Source of the DNA: [Mycobacterium] crassicus
GTDB lineage: Bacteria > Actinomycetota > Actinomycetes > Mycobacteriales > Mycobacteriaceae
Length of the DNA stretch: 64,000 bases
Direction: 5' to 3'
Assembly (NCBI RefSeq): GCF_020181615.1
Contig: NZ_CP084029.1
Span: forward strand, 2,984,520-3,048,519
Of this stretch, positions 23,491 through 31,272 are shown piece by piece. Numbering within the stretch: the stretch's first letter is position 1; each line of letters starts with the position of its first letter. The notes beneath the pieces were generated by a model. That model saw nothing but the letters and a program-made list of their open reading frames with translations. It was not told the origin of the DNA and did not search any database. The position numbers and the translations under genes are program-made.

Positions 23491-23820
23491 ATGCCGAACT
23501 CGCTACACCAGGTGAAGGCCGAGCTGTTCAAGACTCTTGGACACCCGGCACGGATTCGGGTGCTCGAACTGCTGGCCGAACACGACCGCACGGTCAGCGA
23601 GCTGCTGCCCGAGGTCGGGTTGGAGGCCTCCAACCTCTCTCAGCAGCTGGGCGTGCTGCGGCGCGCGGGTGTCGTGATGGCGACTAAGGAGGGCAACACG
23701 GTGATGTATTCGATCGCTTCACCGGTGATCGCCGAGCTGCTCGCGGTGGCCCGCAAAGCACTCGCCGGCCTGCTCACCGAGCAGGCTGCGATCCTCGACA
23801 ACCTGCGGGCCGAGCAATGA
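23491..23820 (+). CDS. ArsR-family regulator heading the hyc-like operon (Rv0081-like)
   Basis: 109-residue winged helix repressor: LGHPARIRVLELLAEHDRTVSEL, recognition helix around ASNLSQQLGVLRRAGVV and wing KEGNTVMYSI. There is no Cys or His metal site in the usual alpha3 or alpha5 positions, so a metal sensor is unlikely. It matches M. tuberculosis Rv0081 in size and in being the first gene of the same operon. Its stop overlaps the next start (ATGA). Probably autoregulates through the A/T-rich dyad just upstream. Confidence 0.9.
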   Translation: MPNSLHQVKAELFKTLGHPARIRVLELLAEHDRTVSELLPEVGLEASNLSQQLGVLRRAGVVMATKEGNTVMYSIASPVIAELLAVARKALAGLLTEQAAILDNLRAEQ

Positions 23821-24290
23821 GCTGGCTGACCAGGATCCTGTCGCTAGGCCGCGTCACCGAGCCGGCTGGACCCCGGCCCGAGCCCGCGGCCGCCCCACTG
23901 GAGCGCGGATCGGTGCAGATCCGCCATGTCGACGCCGGATCGTGCAACGGTTGCGAGATCGAGATCGGCGGGGCCTTCGGCCCGGTGTATGACGCCGAAC
24001 GGTTCGGCGCCCGGCTCGTCGCATCCCCGCGCCACGCGGATGCCCTGCTGGTCACCGGCGTGGTCACCCGCAACATGGCCGAGCCGCTGCGCAACACCGT
24101 CGAGGCCACCCCCCAGCCCCGGCGTGTGATCGCCTGCGGTGACTGCGCGCTCAACCGGGGCGTGTTCGCGCAGGCATACGGAACCGTCGGCGCCGTCGGC
24201 GATGTCGTCCCGGTGGACGTCGAGATCCCCGGCTGCCCGCCCACTCCCGAGCAGATCCTCGCCGCACTTCGGTCGGTGACCGGCAAGTGA
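23817..24290 (+). CDS. Hydrogenase-4/complex-I small subunit (NuoB/HycG-like, Rv0082-like)
   Basis: 157 residues. Carries the iron-sulfur cluster proximal to the active-site subunit. The ligands are all visible: Cys43 and Cys46 in GSCNGCEIEI, Cys107 and Cys110 in ACGDCA, and Cys140 in PGCPPTPEQIL. This is the standard cubane-binding set of NuoB/HycG proteins, so a [4Fe-4S] cluster should be present. The N-terminal 30 residues are a proline/alanine-rich leader. Cytosolic arm subunit. It overlaps both neighbours (ATGA before, GTGA after). Confidence 0.92.
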   Translation: MSWLTRILSLGRVTEPAGPRPEPAAAPLERGSVQIRHVDAGSCNGCEIEIGGAFGPVYDAERFGARLVASPRHADALLVTGVVTRNMAEPLRNTVEATPQPRRVIACGDCALNRGVFAQAYGTVGAVGDVVPVDVEIPGCPPTPEQILAALRSVTGK

Positions 24291-26257
24291 GCACGCTGGC
24301 CGTCACTCCCCCGGAATCCTTGCGCCGCGAGGGGCTCGGCTCCCTACTCAGCGGTGCGGCGACGGCCGGGATCGGCTCGGCCGGGATCGGCGTGGGCCTG
24401 GCCGGCCTGTTCGGCACCCTGCCCGCAATCCGGCTCAGCTGGCTGATTCCGCTGCTGGGCATGCAGCTGCGCGTCGAACCGGTCGGTGGTTTCTTCATGG
24501 TGCTGACCGGCGCGGTGGCCGTCGCGGCCGGCCTGTACTGGATCGGCTACGCGCGCCACGAGAACTTCGGCGCGGTCCCGCTGGTGACACTGCCCCTGTT
24601 CGTGCTCGCCCTCCTGGCGGTTCCGGCGGCCGGGTCGGTCACCACGTTCCTGTTCGCGTGGGAACTGATGGCGTTGACCTCGCTGGTACTGGTGCTCACC
24701 GATCAACAGCGCAGCGAGGTGCGCTCAGCCGCCCTGGTCTACGCGGTGATGACGCAGCTGGGCTTCGTGACACTGATGCTGGGGATGGTGGTGCTGGCGG
24801 CCACCGCCGGCGATGACTTCGCGGGTATCGGCGCGCTGCCGGACGGCGTGCGCAACACCGTCTTCGTATTGACCCTGATCGGTTTCGGTTCCAAGGCCGG
24901 CCTGCTGCCGCTGCACGCGTGGCTGCCCCGCGCACATCCGGAGGCACCGAGTCCGATCTCGGCGTTGCTGTCCGGCGCCATGGTGAACCTCGGCATCTAC
25001 GGGATCATCCGGATCGACCTGCAGCTGCTGGGCCCCGGCCCGCGGTGGTGGGCCTTGACGCTCCTGATCATCGGCGGTGTGTCCGCGGTGTACGGGGTGC
25101 TGCAGGCATCGGTGGCGACCGATCTCAAACGGCTGCTTGCCTATTCGACGACCGAGAACATCGGGCTGATCACCCTGGCGCTGGGTACGGCCATGTTGCT
25201 GTCAGGCTCGGGATCCCGCCAGGCGGCGGCTGTCGCCATGACTGCGGCATTGCTGCACCTGACCGCCCACAGCGCGTTCAAGAGCCTGGGTTTCTTCGCC
25301 GCCGGGTCGGTGCTGGCCGCCACCGGATTGCGCGATCTGGACCGGCTCGGCGGCCTAGCTCGCCGAATGCCGGTCACCACTGTGCTTTTCGGTGTGGCTG
25401 CGCTCGGCGCCGCCGGACTGCCACTGGGCGCGGCTTTCGCCAGCGAGTGGCTGCTCCTGCAGTCTCTGATGAACGCCCGGCCCGACCATGACGCCACCAT
25501 CGCGCTGCTGACACCGCTGGCGGTGGCCGCGGTGGCCCTGACCGCAGGATTGGGGGTGGCCGCCATGGTGAAGGCGTTCGGAATCGGCTTCCTGGCGCGT
25601 CCGCGCTCGGATGCCGCAGCGGCCGCGCACGAGGCGCCCCGCACGATGATCGCCGCGATGGCACTGCCCGCGCTGGCCTGCCTGGTGCTGGCCTTGGCCC
25701 CGGGCGCCGTGGCGCCCATGCTCAGCCGGGTGCTCGACACCCTGCCGATCTCCGGGGACGCCCCCACTCTCGGGGTGTTCCTGCGCATTCCGGGCCTGCA
25801 CGGTTCGATGTCCCCCGGTCTGCTGGCCGCTGTGGTGGCCGCCGCCGTGCTGGTGGTGCTGATCGGTTCGCGCTGGCGCGCAAGCCGGCGTCCCAGCCCG
25901 GCCACGGTGCCGTTGTGGGCCTGCGGCGCTGAGGAACTGAGCCCCCGCATGCAGTACACCGCGACGTCGTTCGCCCAGCCGCTGCAGCAGGTCTTCGACG
26001 ACGTGCTCCGCACCGACACCGACGTCGAGGTGACCCGCCAGGCCGCGTCTGGCCAAGCGTCATCGAGTTATGTGGTGGAGCGGATCGCCTATCGGGCACG
26101 CGTCGCCGACGTCATCGAGGACCGCTGGTATGCCCCGGTGCTGCGCGCCATCGCCGCGGCAGCGCAGCTGGTCCGCCGCGCCCACACCGGAAGCGTGCAC
26201 CTGTACCTGGCCTACGGCGCCGTCGGTGTGCTGATCGCCCTGCTGGTGGCCCGATGA
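24287..26257 (+). CDS. HyfB-like proton-translocating antiporter subunit (Rv0083-like)
   Basis: 656-residue Mrp/NuoL-type membrane subunit, starting at GTG 24287. The central antiporter module contains FAWELMALTSLVLVL (conserved Glu in helix 5), GSKAGLLPLHAWLPRAHPEAPSPISALLSG (conserved Lys and His; a landmark longer than most) and ATDLKRLLAYSTTENIGLI. A hydrophilic, partly periplasmic C-terminal region after about residue 530 contains CGAEELSPRMQYTATSFAQP, as in HyfB proteins. It should form part of the proton channel of the membrane arm. Confidence 0.92.
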   Translation: MSTLAVTPPESLRREGLGSLLSGAATAGIGSAGIGVGLAGLFGTLPAIRLSWLIPLLGMQLRVEPVGGFFMVLTGAVAVAAGLYWIGYARHENFGAVPLVTLPLFVLALLAVPAAGSVTTFLFAWELMALTSLVLVLTDQQRSEVRSAALVYAVMTQLGFVTLMLGMVVLAATAGDDFAGIGALPDGVRNTVFVLTLIGFGSKAGLLPLHAWLPRAHPEAPSPISALLSGAMVNLGIYGIIRIDLQLLGPGPRWWALTLLIIGGVSAVYGVLQASVATDLKRLLAYSTTENIGLITLALGTAMLLSGSGSRQAAAVAMTAALLHLTAHSAFKSLGFFAAGSVLAATGLRDLDRLGGLARRMPVTTVLFGVAALGAAGLPLGAAFASEWLLLQSLMNARPDHDATIALLTPLAVAAVALTAGLGVAAMVKAFGIGFLARPRSDAAAAAHEAPRTMIAAMALPALACLVLALAPGAVAPMLSRVLDTLPISGDAPTLGVFLRIPGLHGSMSPGLLAAVVAAAVLVVLIGSRWRASRRPSPATVPLWACGAEELSPRMQYTATSFAQPLQQVFDDVLRTDTDVEVTRQAASGQASSSYVVERIAYRARVADVIEDRWYAPVLRAIAAAAQLVRRAHTGSVHLYLAYGAVGVLIALLVAR

Positions 26258-27216
26258 ACGCGATGGCTTACCTAGCCGGTTTCGTGCAGGTCGCCGGCGT
26301 CATCCTCGGCGCCCCGCTGGTGATCGGCCTGATGCGACAGGTCCGGGCGCGAGCCGAGGGCCGCGCCGGCGCGGGAATTCTGCAACCGTGGCGCGACACC
26401 CGCAAGCTGCTGGGCAAGCAGGTACTCAAGCCGCTCGGAACCACCTGGGTGTTCGCCGCGGCCCCGGCCGCGGTGGCCGCCACCACGCTGGTCATCGTCG
26501 CCACCGCGCCGCTGGTGGCCACCGGCTCGCCGCTGGACCCGGTCGCCGACCTGATCACCGTCGTGGGACTGCTGTTCCTGGGCACCGTGGCGCTCACCCT
26601 GGCCGGGATCGACACCGCGACGGCATTCGGCGGAATGGGTGCGAGCCGGGAGATCACCATCGCGGCCCTGGTCGAGCCGACCATTCTGCTGGCGGTGTTC
26701 GCCCTGTCGGTTCCGGCGGGTTCGGCCAACCTGGGCGCCATCGTCGGCAACACCATCGAGAATCCGGGTCAGGTCATCTCGCTCGCCAGTGCACTGGCGT
26801 TCGTCGCCCTGGTGATCGTGATCGTCGCGGAGACCGGCCGACTGCCGGTGGACAACCCGTCCACGCACCTCGAGCTGACGATGGTGCACGAGGCGATGGT
26901 GCTGGAATACGCCGGCCCCAAGCTCGCGCTGGTCGAATGGGCCAGCGGCATGCGGTTGACGGTGCTGCTCGCGTTGCTGGCGAACCTGTTCGTCCCGTGG
27001 GGAATTGCCGGTGCTGACCCAAGCCTGGTCGACGTGTTCCTCGGCTTCGGGGCGATCGCGATCAAGGTGGCGGTGCTGGCGGTCGCCCTGGCCGGGGTCG
27101 AGGTGTTCATCGCCAAGCTGCGGCTGTTCCGGGTGCCCGAGTTGCTCGCCGGGTCGTTCCTGTTGGCGCTGCTGGCCGTGACGGCGGCGAACTTCTTCTC
27201 AGGGGCAGGCGGATGA
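26254..27216 (+). CDS. hycD: HycD/HyfC-like membrane subunit (NuoH family, Rv0084-like)
   Basis: 320 residues, about eight hydrophobic helices. Equivalent to complex I NuoH, which contacts the cytosolic arm near the quinone site. The conserved cytosolic loop [22 protein letters not shown] is the NuoH/HycD signature; [27 protein letters not shown] is the acidic loop with several conserved Glu/Asp. Coupled by ATGA on both sides. Confidence 0.93.
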
Positions 27217-27869
27217 CCTACGTCAACATGCTGGATCTGGCCGCCGGCGGGGTGCTGCTGGCCGCGGTGCTGGCGGTGTGGCGCCGGGACCTGTCGGCGA
27301 TCGTGCGCCGGCTGCTCGTCGCCCAGGGCATCGCGCTGGCCGCGATCCCGATCATTCGCGGTGTCCAGGACCAGGATCGTGCCCTGATCGCGGTCGGGGT
27401 CGCGGTACTGGCCGTGCGCGCATTCCTGCTCCCGTGGTTGTTGTCCCGGGCGCTGGGCGCCGAGCGCAAGGAACGCCGGGAGGCCGCTCCCCTGGTCAGT
27501 AACGCCGCGTCGCTGCTGGTGGTCACCGCCCTGGTGGTCGCGGCGTTCACCATCACCCAGCCGGTGATCGCGCTGGCGCCCAGCACCGCCACCATCGCCG
27601 CGCCGGCGGCCATCGCAACCGTGCTGGTCGCGCTGTTCATGATGGCGACCCGCCGCAATGCCATCTCCCAAGCGGTCGGGTTGTTGATGTTGGACAACGG
27701 GATTTCCGCCACCGCGTTCCTGCTGACCGCCGGTGTCCCGCTGATCGTCGAACTCGGAGCGTCACTGGATGTGTTGTTCGTGCTGATCGTGCTCGGCGTG
27801 CTGACCGGACAACTGCGCAACGCCTTCGGCGGCGTGGACCTGGACCTGCTGCGGGAGTTGCGGGACTGA
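27213..27869 (+). CDS. hycP: HyfE-like membrane subunit (NuoK-like, HycP/Rv0085-like)
   Basis: 218 residues with about seven hydrophobic segments. A HyfE-type protein whose C-terminal half ([23 protein letters not shown]) is homologous to NuoK, including a Glu in a later helix ([15 protein letters not shown]). Starts inside the hycD stop (ATGA) and ends in a TGATG junction with the next gene. Confidence 0.88.
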
Positions 27870-29335
27870 TGACATCGTTGATCCTGCTTTCACTGCTGGC
27901 GCCCGTTACGGCGTCACTGTTCGCCCTTGCGGTCGGGTGGCGCCGGGTCAGCGCGGTCGCCACGCTGGCCTCGGCACTGACGATTCTCGGATGCGGTGTG
28001 GCCCTGGGGCTTCAGGTCGGCGACCGGGTACACCTGGGCATGTCCGGCCTGCTGCGCGCCGATGCGCTGTCAGCGACCATGCTGATCGTCATCGGTGTGG
28101 TCGGCAGCCTGGCCACCTGGGCGAGCATCGGTTACCTCGACGCCGAGTTGGCCCGCGGGCACACCGACGCGCGTGGCGCCCGGCTGTACGGCATCCTCAC
28201 CCCGGCGTTCCTGGCAGCCATGGCACTTGCGGTGTCGGCCAACAACATCGGCGTGGTGTGGATAGCGGTGGAGGCCACCACGGTGGTCACCGCCTTCCTG
28301 GTCGGACATCACCGCAGCCGGGCCGCCCTGGAGGCCACCTGGAAGTACGTCATGGTGTGTTCGGTGGGCATCACCATCGCGTTCCTGGGGACCGTCCTGC
28401 TGCACTTCGCCGCTCGTCACGCCGGTGCCGACAGCGAGACCGCCCTGCACCTCGACGTCCTGCTCTCCCATGCCGCCGGCCTCGACCCGGCGGTCACCCG
28501 GCTGGCCGGTGCGCTGTTGCTGATCGGGTACGGCGCGAAGATGGGCCTGGCACCGTTCCACACCTGGCTGGCCGATGCGCACAGCCAGGCCCCGGCACCG
28601 GTGTCGGCGTTGATGAGCGGCGTGCTGCTGTCGGTCGCGTTCTCGGTGATCATCCGGATCAAGCCGATCATCGACGTCGCGGTGGGACCCGGTTTTCTGC
28701 GGACCGCGTTGCTGGGCGCCGGATTGACGACGTTGTTCATCGCCGCGCTGCTGTTGACCGTCACCACCGACCTCAAACGGATGCTGGCCTACTCATCGAT
28801 GGAGACCATGGGCCTGATGGCTGTCGCCGCAGCGGCGGGCACCGGCCTGGCGATCGCGGCGCTGCTGCTGCACATCCTGGCCCACGGCATCGGCAAGACG
28901 GTGCTGTTCCTGGCCGGCGGGCAGCTGCAGGCCGCCCACGATTCGACGGCGATCGGCGAGATCACCGCGGTGCTACGCCGATCACGGCTGGTGGGTGGCG
29001 CGTTCGCGGTCGGGATGGTGGTGCTGCTCGGTTTACCGCCGTTCGCGATGTTCGCCAGCGAACTGGCCATCGCGATCTCGCTGGCCGACGCCCAACTGAC
29101 GTGGGCGCTGGGCCTGGCACTGGCGGCACTGGTGGTGGCGTTCGCCGCACTGATCCGCAACTCCGGCCGGATCCTGCTGGGCACACCGGCCGCCGGCAGT
29201 CCGGCGATCCGGGTGCCGGCGACCGTCGCCGCGGCCCTGGTCACCGGGGTGCTCGTCTCGATCGCGCTGGGTGTGACCGCCGGCCCGCTCTCCGACCTGT
29301 TCGCCACCGCCGCAAGCCAACTCGGGGCACGCTGA
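27869..29335 (+). CDS. hycQ: HyfF-like antiporter subunit (NuoN/NuoM-like, HycQ/Rv0086-like)
   Basis: 488-residue antiporter-like membrane protein, the second of two in the operon. Conserved blocks: VWIAVEATTVVTAFLVG (helix 5 Glu), GYGAKMGLAPFHTWLADAHSQAPAPVSALMSG (Lys and His), TTDLKRMLAYSSMETMGL and HGIGKTVLFLAGG. All the charged proton-path residues I can locate are kept, which suggests coupling to ion translocation has been retained. Joined to neighbours by 1-bp TGATG overlaps. Confidence 0.92.
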   Translation: MTSLILLSLLAPVTASLFALAVGWRRVSAVATLASALTILGCGVALGLQVGDRVHLGMSGLLRADALSATMLIVIGVVGSLATWASIGYLDAELARGHTDARGARLYGILTPAFLAAMALAVSANNIGVVWIAVEATTVVTAFLVGHHRSRAALEATWKYVMVCSVGITIAFLGTVLLHFAARHAGADSETALHLDVLLSHAAGLDPAVTRLAGALLLIGYGAKMGLAPFHTWLADAHSQAPAPVSALMSGVLLSVAFSVIIRIKPIIDVAVGPGFLRTALLGAGLTTLFIAALLLTVTTDLKRMLAYSSMETMGLMAVAAAAGTGLAIAALLLHILAHGIGKTVLFLAGGQLQAAHDSTAIGEITAVLRRSRLVGGAFAVGMVVLLGLPPFAMFASELAIAISLADAQLTWALGLALAALVVAFAALIRNSGRILLGTPAAGSPAIRVPATVAAALVTGVLVSIALGVTAGPLSDLFATAASQLGAR

Positions 29336-30813
29336 TGAATCCGATCACCCACGCACAGTCGGTCTCCGAGGCCGAGTTGACCGGCGCCGCCGCGGCCCTG
29401 CTGGCCGACGGGTTCCGGCTCGCCCTGGTGGCCGCCCACGACGACGGCGACAGCCTGCGGGTGGTGTACCTGTTTCTCGCGGGCCGCCCGGATCGCCGCA
29501 CCGAATTGACCCTGACCATTCCGGCGGACAACCCGACCGTGCCCTCGCTGGCCCGGATCTCGTTCCCGTCCGGCCGCTTCGAGCGAGAGATGATGGACCT
29601 CTACGGGATCACCCCGGTCGATCATCCGCAACCGCGCCGCCTGGTGCGGCACGCGCACTGGCCTCAGGACTGGCACCCGATGCGCAACGATGCCGGCCCA
29701 CCCCCGGAATTCGCTGCCGGGGGCCACTTTCCGTTCCTGAACGTGGACGGGGCCGGCGTCTACGAGATCCCGGTCGGACCGGTGCACGCCGGCCTGATCG
29801 AGCCGGGCCACTTCCGATTCTCGGTGGTCGGCGAATCGGTGCTGCGGCTCAAGGCGCGACTGTGGTTCGTGCACCGCGGAATCGAGCGGCTCTTTCACGG
29901 CCGGGCCGCCGACGCCGCGGTCGAACTGGCCGAACGGATCAGCGGCGATACCTCCGCGGGTCATGCCCTCGCCCACGCCCTGGCCGTGGAAGATGCGCTC
30001 GGCATTGAGCTGCCCGACCCGGCGCACCGGCTGCGTGCCCTACTCGTCGAACTCGAGCGGCTCTACAACCATGTCACCGACCTGGGCGCCCTGGCCAACG
30101 ATGTCGCCTTCGGACTGGCCAACGCGCACGCCCAACGCGTCCGCGAGCTGCTGCTGCGTATCAACGCTCAGGTGACCGGCCATCGGCTGCTGCGCGGGGC
30201 GATCAGCCCCGGAAGTGTTGCGCTGCAGGCACTGCCCGACCCGAATGGGCTGCAGGAACTGGCCGACGACGTCGCCGAGATCGCCGAGCTGACGCTGGGC
30301 AACTCGGTGATCTACGACCGGTTCGCCGCGACGTCGGTGTTGAGCCGGCAGGACGCGCAGGCGCTGGGCACGCTGGGTTACGTGGCTCGCGCCAGTGGCA
30401 TCGTCACCGACGCCCGCCTCGACCATCCGACCACCGAGCTGCCGGTCCGTGAAGTGAGCGAGACCGCCGGCGACGTGCTCGCCCGCTACACCGTCCGCCG
30501 CGACGAGTTCGCGGCGTCGGTGGCGCTGTGCCGCAACCTGATCGACGGTCACCAAGGCCCCCTCGAGATCCGGGCGGAGCTCCCCGCTGCGACCCGGGCG
30601 TGCAGCGGGGTCGGTATCGCCGAGGGCTGGCGCGGCAGCATCGTGCACCGGGTGGAGATCGGCGCCGACGGGACCTTCACCCGGGCCAAGATCGTCGACC
30701 CGTCCTGGTTCAACTGGCCCGCCCTGCCGATGTCCATGACCGACACCATCGTTCCGGACTTCCCCCTGACCAACAAAAGCTTCAACCTGTCCTACGCCGG
30801 AAACGACTTATAG
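29335..30813 (+). CDS. hycE: HycE-like large subunit (NuoC-NuoD fusion) lacking both NiFe-ligand motifs
   Basis: 492 residues. The N-terminal about 110 residues are a NuoC/30-kDa domain (RISFPSGRFEREMMDLYGI). The remainder is a NuoD/hydrogenase large-subunit domain (RLWFVHRGIERL, LAVEDALGIELPDPAHRLR, LLVELERLYNHV). In NiFe hydrogenases this domain has CxxC near its start and CxxC at the very end. Here the first site reads RISGDTSAGH (201-210) and the last reads KSFNLSYAGNDL (481-492): no Cys at either. The only cysteines in the domain are in ALCRN and RACSG, far from both sites. The protein therefore cannot bind a normal NiFe centre and is a complex-I-like subunit. The frame extends upstream to 27937, but that is shadow of the preceding gene. 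Confidence 0.93.
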   Translation: MNPITHAQSVSEAELTGAAAALLADGFRLALVAAHDDGDSLRVVYLFLAGRPDRRTELTLTIPADNPTVPSLARISFPSGRFEREMMDLYGITPVDHPQPRRLVRHAHWPQDWHPMRNDAGPPPEFAAGGHFPFLNVDGAGVYEIPVGPVHAGLIEPGHFRFSVVGESVLRLKARLWFVHRGIERLFHGRAADAAVELAERISGDTSAGHALAHALAVEDALGIELPDPAHRLRALLVELERLYNHVTDLGALANDVAFGLANAHAQRVRELLLRINAQVTGHRLLRGAISPGSVALQALPDPNGLQELADDVAEIAELTLGNSVIYDRFAATSVLSRQDAQALGTLGYVARASGIVTDARLDHPTTELPVREVSETAGDVLARYTVRRDEFAASVALCRNLIDGHQGPLEIRAELPAATRACSGVGIAEGWRGSIVHRVEIGADGTFTRAKIVDPSWFNWPALPMSMTDTIVPDFPLTNKSFNLSYAGNDL

Positions 30814-30835: not shown

Positions 30836-30854
30836 ATGTCAAGATATTTGATAT
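30836..30854. promoter_or_regulatory. Putative MarR operator overlapping the marR start codon
   Basis: ATnTCAAnnnnnTTGAnAT dyad (6+6 matched bases around a 5-base centre, with one unmatched position in each arm). It covers the first two bases of ATG 30853. Location and A/T-rich symmetry fit autorepression by the MarR-family product. No Shine-Dalgarno sequence is seen between it and the ATG. Confidence 0.45.
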
Positions 30855-31272
30855 GGGTGACGTGGACGCCGCTCCGCTGGGATATCTGCTCTACCGGGTG
30901 GGTTCGGCGCTGCGTCCGCAGGTGACCGCCGTACTCGGGCCGCTGGGGCTGACACTGCCCGAATTCGTCTGCATGCGAGTGCTTTCGCTGTATCCCGGGC
31001 TGTCCAGCGCCGAGTTGGCGCGTCACACCAACGTCACCCCGCAGGCCATGAACACCGTGCTGCACCGGCTGCAGAAGCGCGGCGCGATAACCCGGCCGGG
31101 ATCGGTGCCGTCCGGGCGCGCCCTACCGGCCAACCTGACCGAGACCGGTGGTGACCTGCTCAAGCAGGCCGAGGACGCGGTCCGGGTCGCCGACGCGCGG
31201 GTGCTGTCCGCCCTGACCTCAGCCGAGCAGCACCAGTTGCGGCAGATGCTGGAGCGGATCGGCGTCCAGTGA
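30853..31272 (+). CDS. MarR-family transcriptional regulator (Rv2887-like)
   Basis: 139 residues, the same length as M. tuberculosis Rv2887 as I recall it, and in the same place beside the amidase gene. Winged helix: LPEFVCMRVLSLYPGLSSAELAR, recognition helix NVTPQAMNTVLHRLQKRGAI and wing PGSVPSGRALPANLTETG. The C-terminal helix is for dimerisation. Rv2887 represses small-molecule-responsive genes; a similar role is likely. It lies only 39 bp after hycE on the same strand, but its own operator-like dyad argues for a separate promoter. Confidence 0.88.
   Translation: MGDVDAAPLGYLLYRVGSALRPQVTAVLGPLGLTLPEFVCMRVLSLYPGLSSAELARHTNVTPQAMNTVLHRLQKRGAITRPGSVPSGRALPANLTETGGDLLKQAEDAVRVADARVLSALTSAEQHQLRQMLERIGVQ

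What the first reader, a model, noticed from the sequence alone, without database searches (positions are those of the whole stretch)
29335..30813. HycE-like large subunit without any nickel-iron ligand motif
The NuoC-NuoD fusion is annotated as hydrogenase by family, but the two CxxC motifs that bind the NiFe centre read RISGDTSAGH (201-210) and KSFNLSYAGNDL (481-492). Both pairs are lost together; the adjacent small subunit keeps its cluster cysteines and the antiporter subunits keep their charged residues. This is a coherent state, not decay: a redox-linked ion pump with an unknown electron acceptor or donor, perhaps a quinone. Whether the same losses are in all Rv0087-type proteins cannot be tested here.
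Basis: partly seen in the sequence, partly recalled or inferred. Interest (0 to 1): 0.72.

Follow-up and report, generated by a model that had tools for sequence, protein, structure and literature searches.

The report
Hydrogenase relative without its metal site
This gene cluster of an environmental mycobacterium encodes a membrane complex built like a hydrogen-making enzyme whose nickel-iron site, and the protein part that feeds it electrons, are gone; it belongs to a known but functionally unexplained family, and its relatives show a graded loss of the whole electron path.

Summary
Observation confirmed. The 492-residue HycE-type protein has S203, T206, S486, G489 where E. coli HycE has nickel-iron ligands C241, C244, C531, C534; its only cysteines are C399 and C423, and it ends where mature HycE ends. 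The single-contig genome shows no HypD and no other NiFe large subunit. The loss is shared by 120 of the 121 closest proteins compared and by 80 of 88 members from many phyla, with a new conserved signature, so it is not decay. It is an Ehr (energy-converting hydrogenase-related) complex, as a 2019 paper already says of the tubercle bacillus operon.

Not found in ten paper searches: the small subunit keeps only a stub of the electron-entry domain HycF, leaving one Fe-S cluster; and in Thermoleophilia and CPR relatives even that cluster's ligands are replaced, while the pocket and nearly all membrane ion-path residues stay, in several CPR genomes directly behind ATP-synthase genes. Electron transfer is thus probably not indispensable to the family. 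For the window, a one-cluster redox pump with a soluble donor remains most likely; quinone-site and MBS hallmarks are not met.

The parts
23491..23820 (+). ArsR/SmtB-family regulator (Rv0081 type), 109 aa, no cysteine
   Evidence: NF033788 77 bits; an ArsR of this cluster lies near the core genes in 20 of 100 stretches, window included
23817..24290 (+). EhrS: NuoB/HycG-type small subunit, 157 aa, proximal [4Fe-4S] ligands C43, C46, C110, C140
   Evidence: MbhJ 6cfw_J 1e-34, HycG 7z0s_G 8e-34; the four Cys in 121 of 121 compared
23817..23870 (+). N-terminal stub of EhrS = probable remnant of the HycF (NuoI-like) N-terminus; the two-cluster ferredoxin domain is absent
   Evidence: HMM of 20 HycF-type N-termini: window stub 13.9 bits, best shuffle 5.3; fused versions
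24287..26257 (+). HyfB/NuoL-like antiporter-type subunit, 656 aa; E126, K203, K332, E387 conserved
   Evidence: (PRK06521 554 bits)
26254..27216 (+). HycD/NuoH-like membrane anchor, 320 aa; conserved acids E133, E141, E193, E207, E213, E218, E283
27213..27869 (+). HyfE/NuoK-like subunit, 218 aa; E180
   Evidence: (PRK11492)
27869..29335 (+). HyfF/NuoN-like antiporter-type subunit, 488 aa; E135, K224, K343
29335..30813 (+). EhrL: NuoC-NuoD/HycE-like large subunit without NiFe ligands, 492 aa
29935..29964 (+). RISGDTSAGH (201-210): HycE C241/C244 replaced by S203/T206, with a new conserved D205
29800..29802 (+). E156, equivalent of HycE Glu193 (suggested proton partner of Cys531)
   Evidence: 80 of 80 Cys-less members; role from a passage in PMC9474812
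30775..30810 (+). KSFNLSYAGNDL (481-492): HycE C531/C534 replaced by S486/G489; C-terminus equals mature HycE end
30853..31272 (+). MarR-family regulator downstream; membership in the operon not shown

Best explanation
The operon encodes an Ehr complex: a complex I relative akin to group 4 [NiFe] hydrogenases, with two antiporter-like pumps, a NuoH-like and a HyfE-like coupling subunit, and a cut-down hydrophilic head (EhrS + EhrL). SHOWN by sequence: no nickel-iron ligand set; one [4Fe-4S] ligand set; no HycF/HycB-type electron-entry gene in the window, only a HycF-like N-terminal stub; conserved acids of the NuoH-like subunit and of the pumps; a conserved re-made pocket (S203, D205, T206, S486, Y487, D491 with E156, the counterpart of the hydrogenase's proton donor). 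INFERRED: a soluble low-potential carrier (ferredoxin or flavoprotein) docks on EhrS where HycF once sat and exchanges electrons with the single cluster; electrons meet a small acceptor or donor, not H+/H2, in the vacated pocket; protonation there through E156 drives the acidic channel and the two pumps, or a proton gradient drives the electrons uphill. Substrate and direction are unknown.
For: Ligand loss and conserved new signature. No HypD match (0 of 1) and no second NiFe large-subunit match in the single-contig genome. Cluster Cys in 121 of 121 compared mycobacterial-type EhrS and in the window-state relatives read, L077 having its first pair shifted to CC: selection still holds the cluster. 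HycF stub; no HycF-like match in the window, by E. coli HycF or by six HycF queries. Actinobacterial relatives with all four NiFe cysteines also lack a HycF match (L044-L048, 0 of 5), so a one-cluster head can apparently serve a hydrogenase-type site through an external partner. Pump and NuoH-like acids. Fold: EhrL model pLDDT 86.5, best match HycE 7z0s_E, TMq 0.87.
Against: Relatives in Thermoleophilia and CPR keep the pocket and nearly all pump residues but have replaced the last cluster's ligands, so electron transfer through that cluster cannot be what conserves the pocket in them. No electron donor is encoded in the operon and none was identified in the genome. Two papers propose a formate dehydrogenase partner for other Ehr complexes (passages in PMC6349859, PMC7894505); I found no such link here. 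Pocket loops 140-161 and 163-166 and the C-terminus 487-492 are low-confidence in the model of the isolated subunit, so the pocket was not seen. I read of no biochemistry on any Ehr.
Confidence: 0.5

Rival explanations
1. The complex works without electron transfer: the re-made pocket binds a ligand or runs a proton-releasing or proton-consuming non-redox reaction that is coupled to, or gates, the two antiporter-like ion channels; the remaining cluster in the window's version is structural or a redox switch. The recalled precedent for non-redox coupling through a NuoL-like subunit is the DAB inorganic-carbon pump.
For: A clade of 20 loci has the same EhrL signature; in the 14 of these 20 whose genomes were searched, EhrS lacks the ligands (T/D/S at 43, C or E at 46, D/G at 110, D at 140). 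NuoH-like E141, E193, E207 stand in 16 of 16 there, HyfB E387 in 14 of 14, HyfF K343 in 19 of 19. ATP-synthase genes lie near Ehr in 7 of 20 loci of this clade, in 5 directly upstream on the same strand, and in 0 of the 80 other stretches. One ligand-less EhrS gives a confident model (pLDDT 91.7). Other Ehr-like types outside the 88 also depart from the ligand set (L011-L013: C, C, P, S; L027, L028: D, D/E, D, S).
Against: In the window's own lineage all four cluster cysteines stand in 121 of 121. HyfE E180 is Q in 13 of 16 of the ligand-less clade but E in 34 of 34 of the window's state, and HyfF E398 is K in 6 of 19 there, so the two may not work alike. In 6 of the 14 genomes other NuoB-type proteins exist that I did not assign.
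Confidence: 0.25
2. Quinone reductase like complex I: electrons from a soluble donor reach menaquinone in the vacated site.
For: NuoD/NuoC homology, complex I folds among the best structural matches, NuoH-like acids conserved, mycobacteria have menaquinone (recalled).
Against: Quinone-head residues not kept: I155 and G204 in 80 of 80; CxxC instead of CC at the proximal cluster, L077 apart.
Confidence: 0.12
3. Sulfane-sulfur or other small-molecule reductase with the proximal cluster itself as catalyst, like Pyrococcus MBS.
For: MBS is a complex I relative that has lost the NiFe site and uses the proximal cluster (passages in PMC7684303).
Against: The MBS hallmark, a cluster motif three residues shorter with one iron without a cysteine, is absent: the window has the GSCNGCE motif that aligns without gaps to MbhJ and HycG. 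MBS keeps 2 of 4 large-subunit Cys and has three clusters in its arm; the window has neither. MBS lacks the proton path, here E156 is kept.
Confidence: 0.08
4. Degenerate remnant of a formate hydrogenlyase with no function.
For: Two functional sites lost relative to FHL; the protein is found in only 6 of 151 genomes sampled in the family.
Against: All genes open, new signature conserved across phyla, pump residues conserved.
Confidence: 0.02

Closest known systems
[quoted passage not shown] Geobacter sulfurreducens Ehr (GSU0739-45)
   Same: Lack of both CxxC motifs, group 4 kinship, antiporter-like, HyfE-like, small and large subunits; the Geobacter-type relatives L124 and L132 have a stub-bearing EhrS without CxxCxxC
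   Different: ArsR gene upstream; gene order with EhrS first, while in L132 it is last. Function unknown in both (passages PMC7894505, PMC10284858); PMC7894505 found Geobacter Ehr more abundant with formate and considers a link to formate dehydrogenase and H2
Mycobacterium tuberculosis hyc operon Rv0082-Rv0087
   Same: Gene names of the same series (table passage in PMC6901956); [quoted passage not shown]
   Different: Its sequences were not compared here by name and its genomic place was not examined
E. coli formate hydrogenlyase (HycBCDEFG + FdhF)
   Same: Large-subunit fold and domain fusion, HycG-like small subunit
   Different: No NiFe ligands, no HycB, no HycF domain, no tail, no HypD match in the genome; no FdhF gene was identified in the operon
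Pyrococcus MBS (formerly Mbx)
   Same: NiFe site vacated, ion pump kept
   Different: Cluster motif length, two retained Cys, three clusters in the arm, Mrp-type distal module (passages)
Tail-less four-Cys group 4 relatives (L085, L095, L114, L121, L127, L129, L131; L016, L017, L019, L022, L025)
   Same: Same core genes, same C-terminal end (NKSFELCYxCxDx); an ArsR of the cluster beside the five actinobacterial ones (L044-L048)
   Different: All four NiFe cysteines present

Membership tests
[NiFe] hydrogenase, group 4 / formate hydrogenlyase | Two CxxC pairs binding Ni-Fe | tested here: not met
   S203/T206/S486/G489; only C399 and C423 in the protein
[NiFe] hydrogenase, group 4 / formate hydrogenlyase | Cofactor maturation genes (HypD) in the genome | tested here: not met
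   PF01924 in 0 of 1 own genome. Not discriminating over relatives: 7 of 12 four-Cys, 9 of 17 single-cluster Cys-less, 4 of 9 ligand-less genomes have it
[NiFe] hydrogenase, group 4 / formate hydrogenlyase | Electron-entry subunits HycF/HycB in the operon | tested here: not met
   No HycF or HycB match in the 64 kb window; no HycF match with six queries
Ehr complex | Group 4 hydrogenase kin whose large subunit lacks the metal-binding motifs | tested here: met
   definition from passages in PMC6349859, PMC10284858, PMC4378227
Ehr complex | Antiporter-like (NuoL/HyfB-type), HyfE-like, NuoH-like, small and large subunits in one operon | tested here: met
   (co-transcription itself not tested)
Ehr complex | Ion translocation coupled to the head's reaction | not testable with these tools
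   Not shown for any Ehr in what I read
Respiratory complex I (NuoB/NuoCD) | Tandem CC at cluster N2 and His/Tyr quinone-head ligands | tested here: not met
   GSCNGCE motif; I155 and G204 at the His38 and Tyr87 columns (Thermus numbering recalled)
MBS sulfane-sulfur reductase | Shortened proximal-cluster motif; two retained large-subunit Cys; further clusters in the arm | tested here: not met
   against passages of PMC7684303

The most novel reading that the evidence does not exclude
The Ehr family is losing its electron wire step by step, and its surviving, conserved core is not a redox enzyme at all: in one clade (Thermoleophilia and CPR bacteria) it is a complex I relative with no predicted Fe-S or NiFe centre, in several CPR genomes encoded directly behind ATP-synthase genes, that couples a ligand or a non-redox proton reaction in the former NiFe pocket to ion transport. 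The mycobacterial window complex, with one cluster left and a stub of the entry domain, is a late stage of the same path, and its cluster may regulate rather than drive it.
Probability: 0.2. Interest if true: 0.88.

Novelty: new member of a known kind. Interest (0 to 1): 0.48.

Why it matters
Mycobacterial versions of this operon are still described as a hydrogenase or formate hydrogenlyase in recent papers (passages in PMC6901956, PMC11361433); the sequence speaks against that. The comparative series (two-cluster entry domain, one-cluster remnant, stub, no cluster at all) turns a vague 'function unknown' into a sharp test: if the ligand-less members translocate ions, coupling in this part of the complex I superfamily does not need electrons, which bears on how complex I itself links its pocket to its pumps.

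Tried and rejected
Rejected: active hydrogenase or formate hydrogenlyase (no ligands, no HypD match, no other NiFe large-subunit match). A CxxC pair elsewhere in the protein. Decay. Quinone and MBS readings, see rivals.

Led nowhere or against me: HypD does not separate four-Cys from Cys-less genomes (three of five actinobacterial four-Cys genomes show none). The simple order 'NiFe lost first, then HycF' is not general: the five actinobacterial four-Cys loci have no HycF match either. On the quick tree the four-Cys state needs at least 4 changes and the full cluster-ligand state 3; this cannot tell gain from loss, and several long branches are unsure. My first stub test, a regular expression, missed the window (35 of 84 matched, 0.9 expected from shuffling). 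The HMM test: 55 N-termini without CxxCxxC, 52 reported, 28 above and one level with the best of 1100 shuffles (759 of which gave a score); only 20 of 36 HycF-type N-termini, those with a TG.VT-like motif, went into the HMM, so it leans to that motif; the 55 include rows of other states. HycF counts depend on the query: 26 of 100, 38 of 100, the latter including L053, L069, L070 and L074, whose small-subunit N-termini hold no CxxCxxC. ATP-synthase linkage is not universal in the ligand-less clade: 7 of 20 loci, 5 directly upstream on the same strand. A second CPR draw (14 of 379 genomes match) gave 10 readable ligand-less EhrS, 4 of them in genomes already seen, one (L174) with stop codons in the match; atpC lay near 3, of which L182 alone was new; L183 and L184 were not readable and L185, L186 are of another type. 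The Fisher p of 5e-6 (7 of 20 against 0 of 79) ignores kinship. Pocket geometry was not read: the model tools gave no coordinates. A partner gene could not be sought by co-occurrence, only 6 of 151 family genomes being positive. Formate dehydrogenase as partner: the genome has an FDH gene with an in-frame TGA far from the operon; no link shown.

Papers: passages only of PMC6349859, PMC7304191, PMC10284858, PMC5037454, PMC6901956, PMC2799521, PMC7894505, PMC7684303, PMC9474812, PMC6177252, PMC3087520, PMC11361433, PMC6728331, PMC8076601 (no Ehr content found), PMC4378227; search listings otherwise. Marreiros 2013, Coppi 2005, He 2011 and the DAB work are known to me only as citations or recall. 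Not found in print by searches (open-licence PMC only; no search was aimed at the stub alone): the HycF stub, the ligand-less EhrS, its place behind ATP-synthase genes.
Full report
WHAT IS THERE. The gene at 29335-30813 codes for 492 residues and overlaps the stop of the gene before it by one base. It is the last of six overlapping or abutting genes behind an ArsR-family gene: ArsR 23491-23820, NuoB/HycG-like 23817-24290, HyfB-like 24287-26257, HycD/NuoH-like 26254-27216, HyfE-like 27213-27869, HyfF-like 27869-29335, HycE/NuoCD-like 29335-30813, then a MarR gene. The closest named proteins are from Mycolicibacter-type mycobacteria (best 91%, [Mycobacterium] vasticus). The genome is one contig of 4.87 Mb, completeness 100.

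THE LIGANDS. The best solved relative is HycE of E. coli formate hydrogenlyase (7z0s_E, E 2e-51). Read against K-12 HycE the ligands C241, C244, C531, C534 correspond to S203, T206, S486, G489. There are only two cysteines in the protein, C399 and C423. The protein stops at the residue that aligns with HycE R537, beyond which HycE carries a tail; removal of that tail by HycI is recalled, not read. In the same genome the NiFe large-subunit family PF00374 matches this gene alone and HypD is not found.

IS IT SHARED. Of the own protein and the 120 homologues listed (best of 7965), 120 of 121 have no cysteine at a ligand column, one (P0048) has C203, and none has a tail. With seven loci of the phylum search (L004-L010) and the own protein these are 88 members: 80 without ligand cysteines, 7 with all four, 1 (L110) with one. 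The phylum search had 38 non-own places, 29 of them fetched as loci; the other 22 fetched (L011-L032: true hydrogenases, NuoD, other Ehr-like types) are not in that count; over all 110 aligned rows it is 89 without, 20 with four, 1 with one. In the 80 the replaced residues are conserved: S203 79, G204 80, D205 76, and of 79 with a full C-terminus S486 79, Y487 79, D491 79, G489 78, N484 70. D205 and N484 mark the Cys-less form; the seven four-Cys members have A or V, and E, there. The suggested proton donor of HycE, Glu193 (passage in PMC9474812), is kept as E156 in 80 of 80; its neighbour D192 is I155.

THE ELECTRON PATH. In the four-Cys members the small subunit carries an N-terminal domain with two CxxCxxC motifs, the HycF/NuoI-like entry domain (7 of 7). 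Among Cys-less members it ranges from two motifs (L037, L038, L117, L125, L100) or a separate gene (L073, L082, L101) through one motif (acidobacterial and verrucomicrobial loci and three of the four rows of the thaumarchaeal-type clade) to none. The window, Nitrospira, Rokubacteria and Geobacter types have none but, as scored by the HMM, mostly keep a short N-terminal stub: of 55 N-termini without CxxCxxC, 28 score above and one level with the best of 1100 shuffles; the window has 13.9 bits against 5.3. In FHL that segment holds an amphipathic helix near the membrane, said to be present in all solved structures of the superfamily (passage, PMC9474812). So the window's small subunit looks like a fusion from which the two-cluster domain was cut out. 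Its own cluster ligands C43, C46, C110, C140 stand in 121 of 121 compared (own plus the 120 listed of 7952). Against a simple order of loss stands that five actinobacterial loci with all four NiFe cysteines have no HycF match either.

THE CLADE WITHOUT ANY CLUSTER. In a clade of 20 rows (SH-aLRT 95, quick tree with the ligand columns left out), Thermoleophilia and CPR bacteria, the small subunit has lost these ligands as well: T, D or S at 43, C or E at 46, D or G at 110, D at 140. This was read in 12 loci with a whole motif (a thirteenth, L056, lacks its N-terminus) and then in 14 of 14 genomes searched for NuoB-type proteins; in 8 of these 14 it is the only NuoB-type match, in 6 there are others that I did not assign. 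A further draw of 379 genomes of the same phylum gave 14 matches, 10 of them readable and ligand-less (4 in genomes already seen; L174 has stop codons in the match), and a draw of 119 genomes in the class of G282 gave 6 ligand-less ones among the 15 loci fetched (2 already seen). The model of one such subunit is confident (pLDDT 91.7). In this clade the large-subunit signature is kept, and most conserved charged residues of the membrane subunits stand as in the others. The exceptions: HyfE E180 is Q in 13 of 16 (E in 34 of 34 of the window's state) and D186 is N in 4 of 16; HyfF E398 is K in 6 of 19 and R263 K in 5 of 19. ATP-synthase genes (gamma, beta, epsilon; Pfam) lie near the complex in 7 of these 20 loci and in 0 of the other 80 stretches, in five of them directly upstream on the same strand. 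Pocket and nearly all pump residues are therefore conserved where no predicted redox centre is left.

HOW IT MOST LIKELY WORKS. For the window I favour a redox-coupled pump with one cluster and a soluble donor: the cluster is under strict conservation, and one-cluster heads also occur with an intact NiFe ligand set. The acceptor is not H+, and neither the quinone nor the MBS hallmark is met. The rival that the complex does not need electrons has gained weight from the ligand-less clade. Direction, partner and substrate are inference. Formate dehydrogenase has been proposed as partner of other Ehr complexes (passages in PMC6349859, PMC7894505); I have nothing for or against it here beyond the absence of such a gene in the operon.

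COMPARISON WITH WHAT IS KNOWN. Ehr complexes are in print as group 4 kin without the metal-binding motifs and of unknown function (passages in PMC6349859, PMC10284858, PMC4378227; the HydDB classifier excludes them, passage in PMC5037454). PMC7304191 notes the missing metal-binding cysteines in CPR Ehr proteins. PMC6728331 (2019) states that the M. [quoted passage not shown] The window is thus a new member of a known kind; the name hydrogenase persists in recent papers (passages in PMC6901956, PMC11361433). The HycF stub, the ligand-less small subunit and its place behind ATP-synthase genes did not turn up in ten searches of open papers (listed in Tried and rejected).

Noticed in passing
L064 3187-3729 with upstream atp genes; also L056, L067, L120, L128, L182: In CPR genomes an Ehr small subunit without any Fe-S ligand set lies directly behind ATP-synthase genes (epsilon in each of the six, beta and gamma as far as the held stretch reaches).
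   Followed up: partly
L044-L048 (G078, G186, G218, G111, G100): Actinobacterial four-Cys relatives have no HycF-like match, and three of the five genomes show no HypD despite the full ligand set.
   Followed up: partly
window 23491-23820: The ArsR-type regulator has no cysteine, so a thiol or Cys-metal sensor is unlikely; ArsR genes of this cluster accompany the core genes in 20 of 100 stretches of several phyla, four-Cys ones included.
   Followed up: partly
L170 5175-8351 (-), own genome C1:369174-372350: A formate dehydrogenase (NF041513) has an in-frame TGA in QARI*HSATVPG, a place that suggests selenocysteine (the position is recalled).
   Followed up: no
L110 8824-10416: Omnitrophota member with a mixed motif (CGDA and FDLSYAAND): one ligand cysteine left.
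   Followed up: no
P0048: One of the 121 compared homologues has C203, i.e. one ligand cysteine; it is known from a single contig.
   Followed up: no
L101 9140-13772: Next to the Ehr operon a second complex I-like gene set (antiporter, NuoH-like, NuoB-like, large subunit) in a Methanomassiliicoccus genome.
   Followed up: no
L011-L014, L027, L028: Other Ehr-like large subunits with different pocket motifs (SGTD, EGVA) whose small subunits, where read, also depart from the four-Cys cluster set.
   Followed up: partly
window 27937-30813: The large-subunit frame stays open through the preceding HyfF gene (958 aa in all), probably an overlap-frame effect of high G+C.
   Followed up: no
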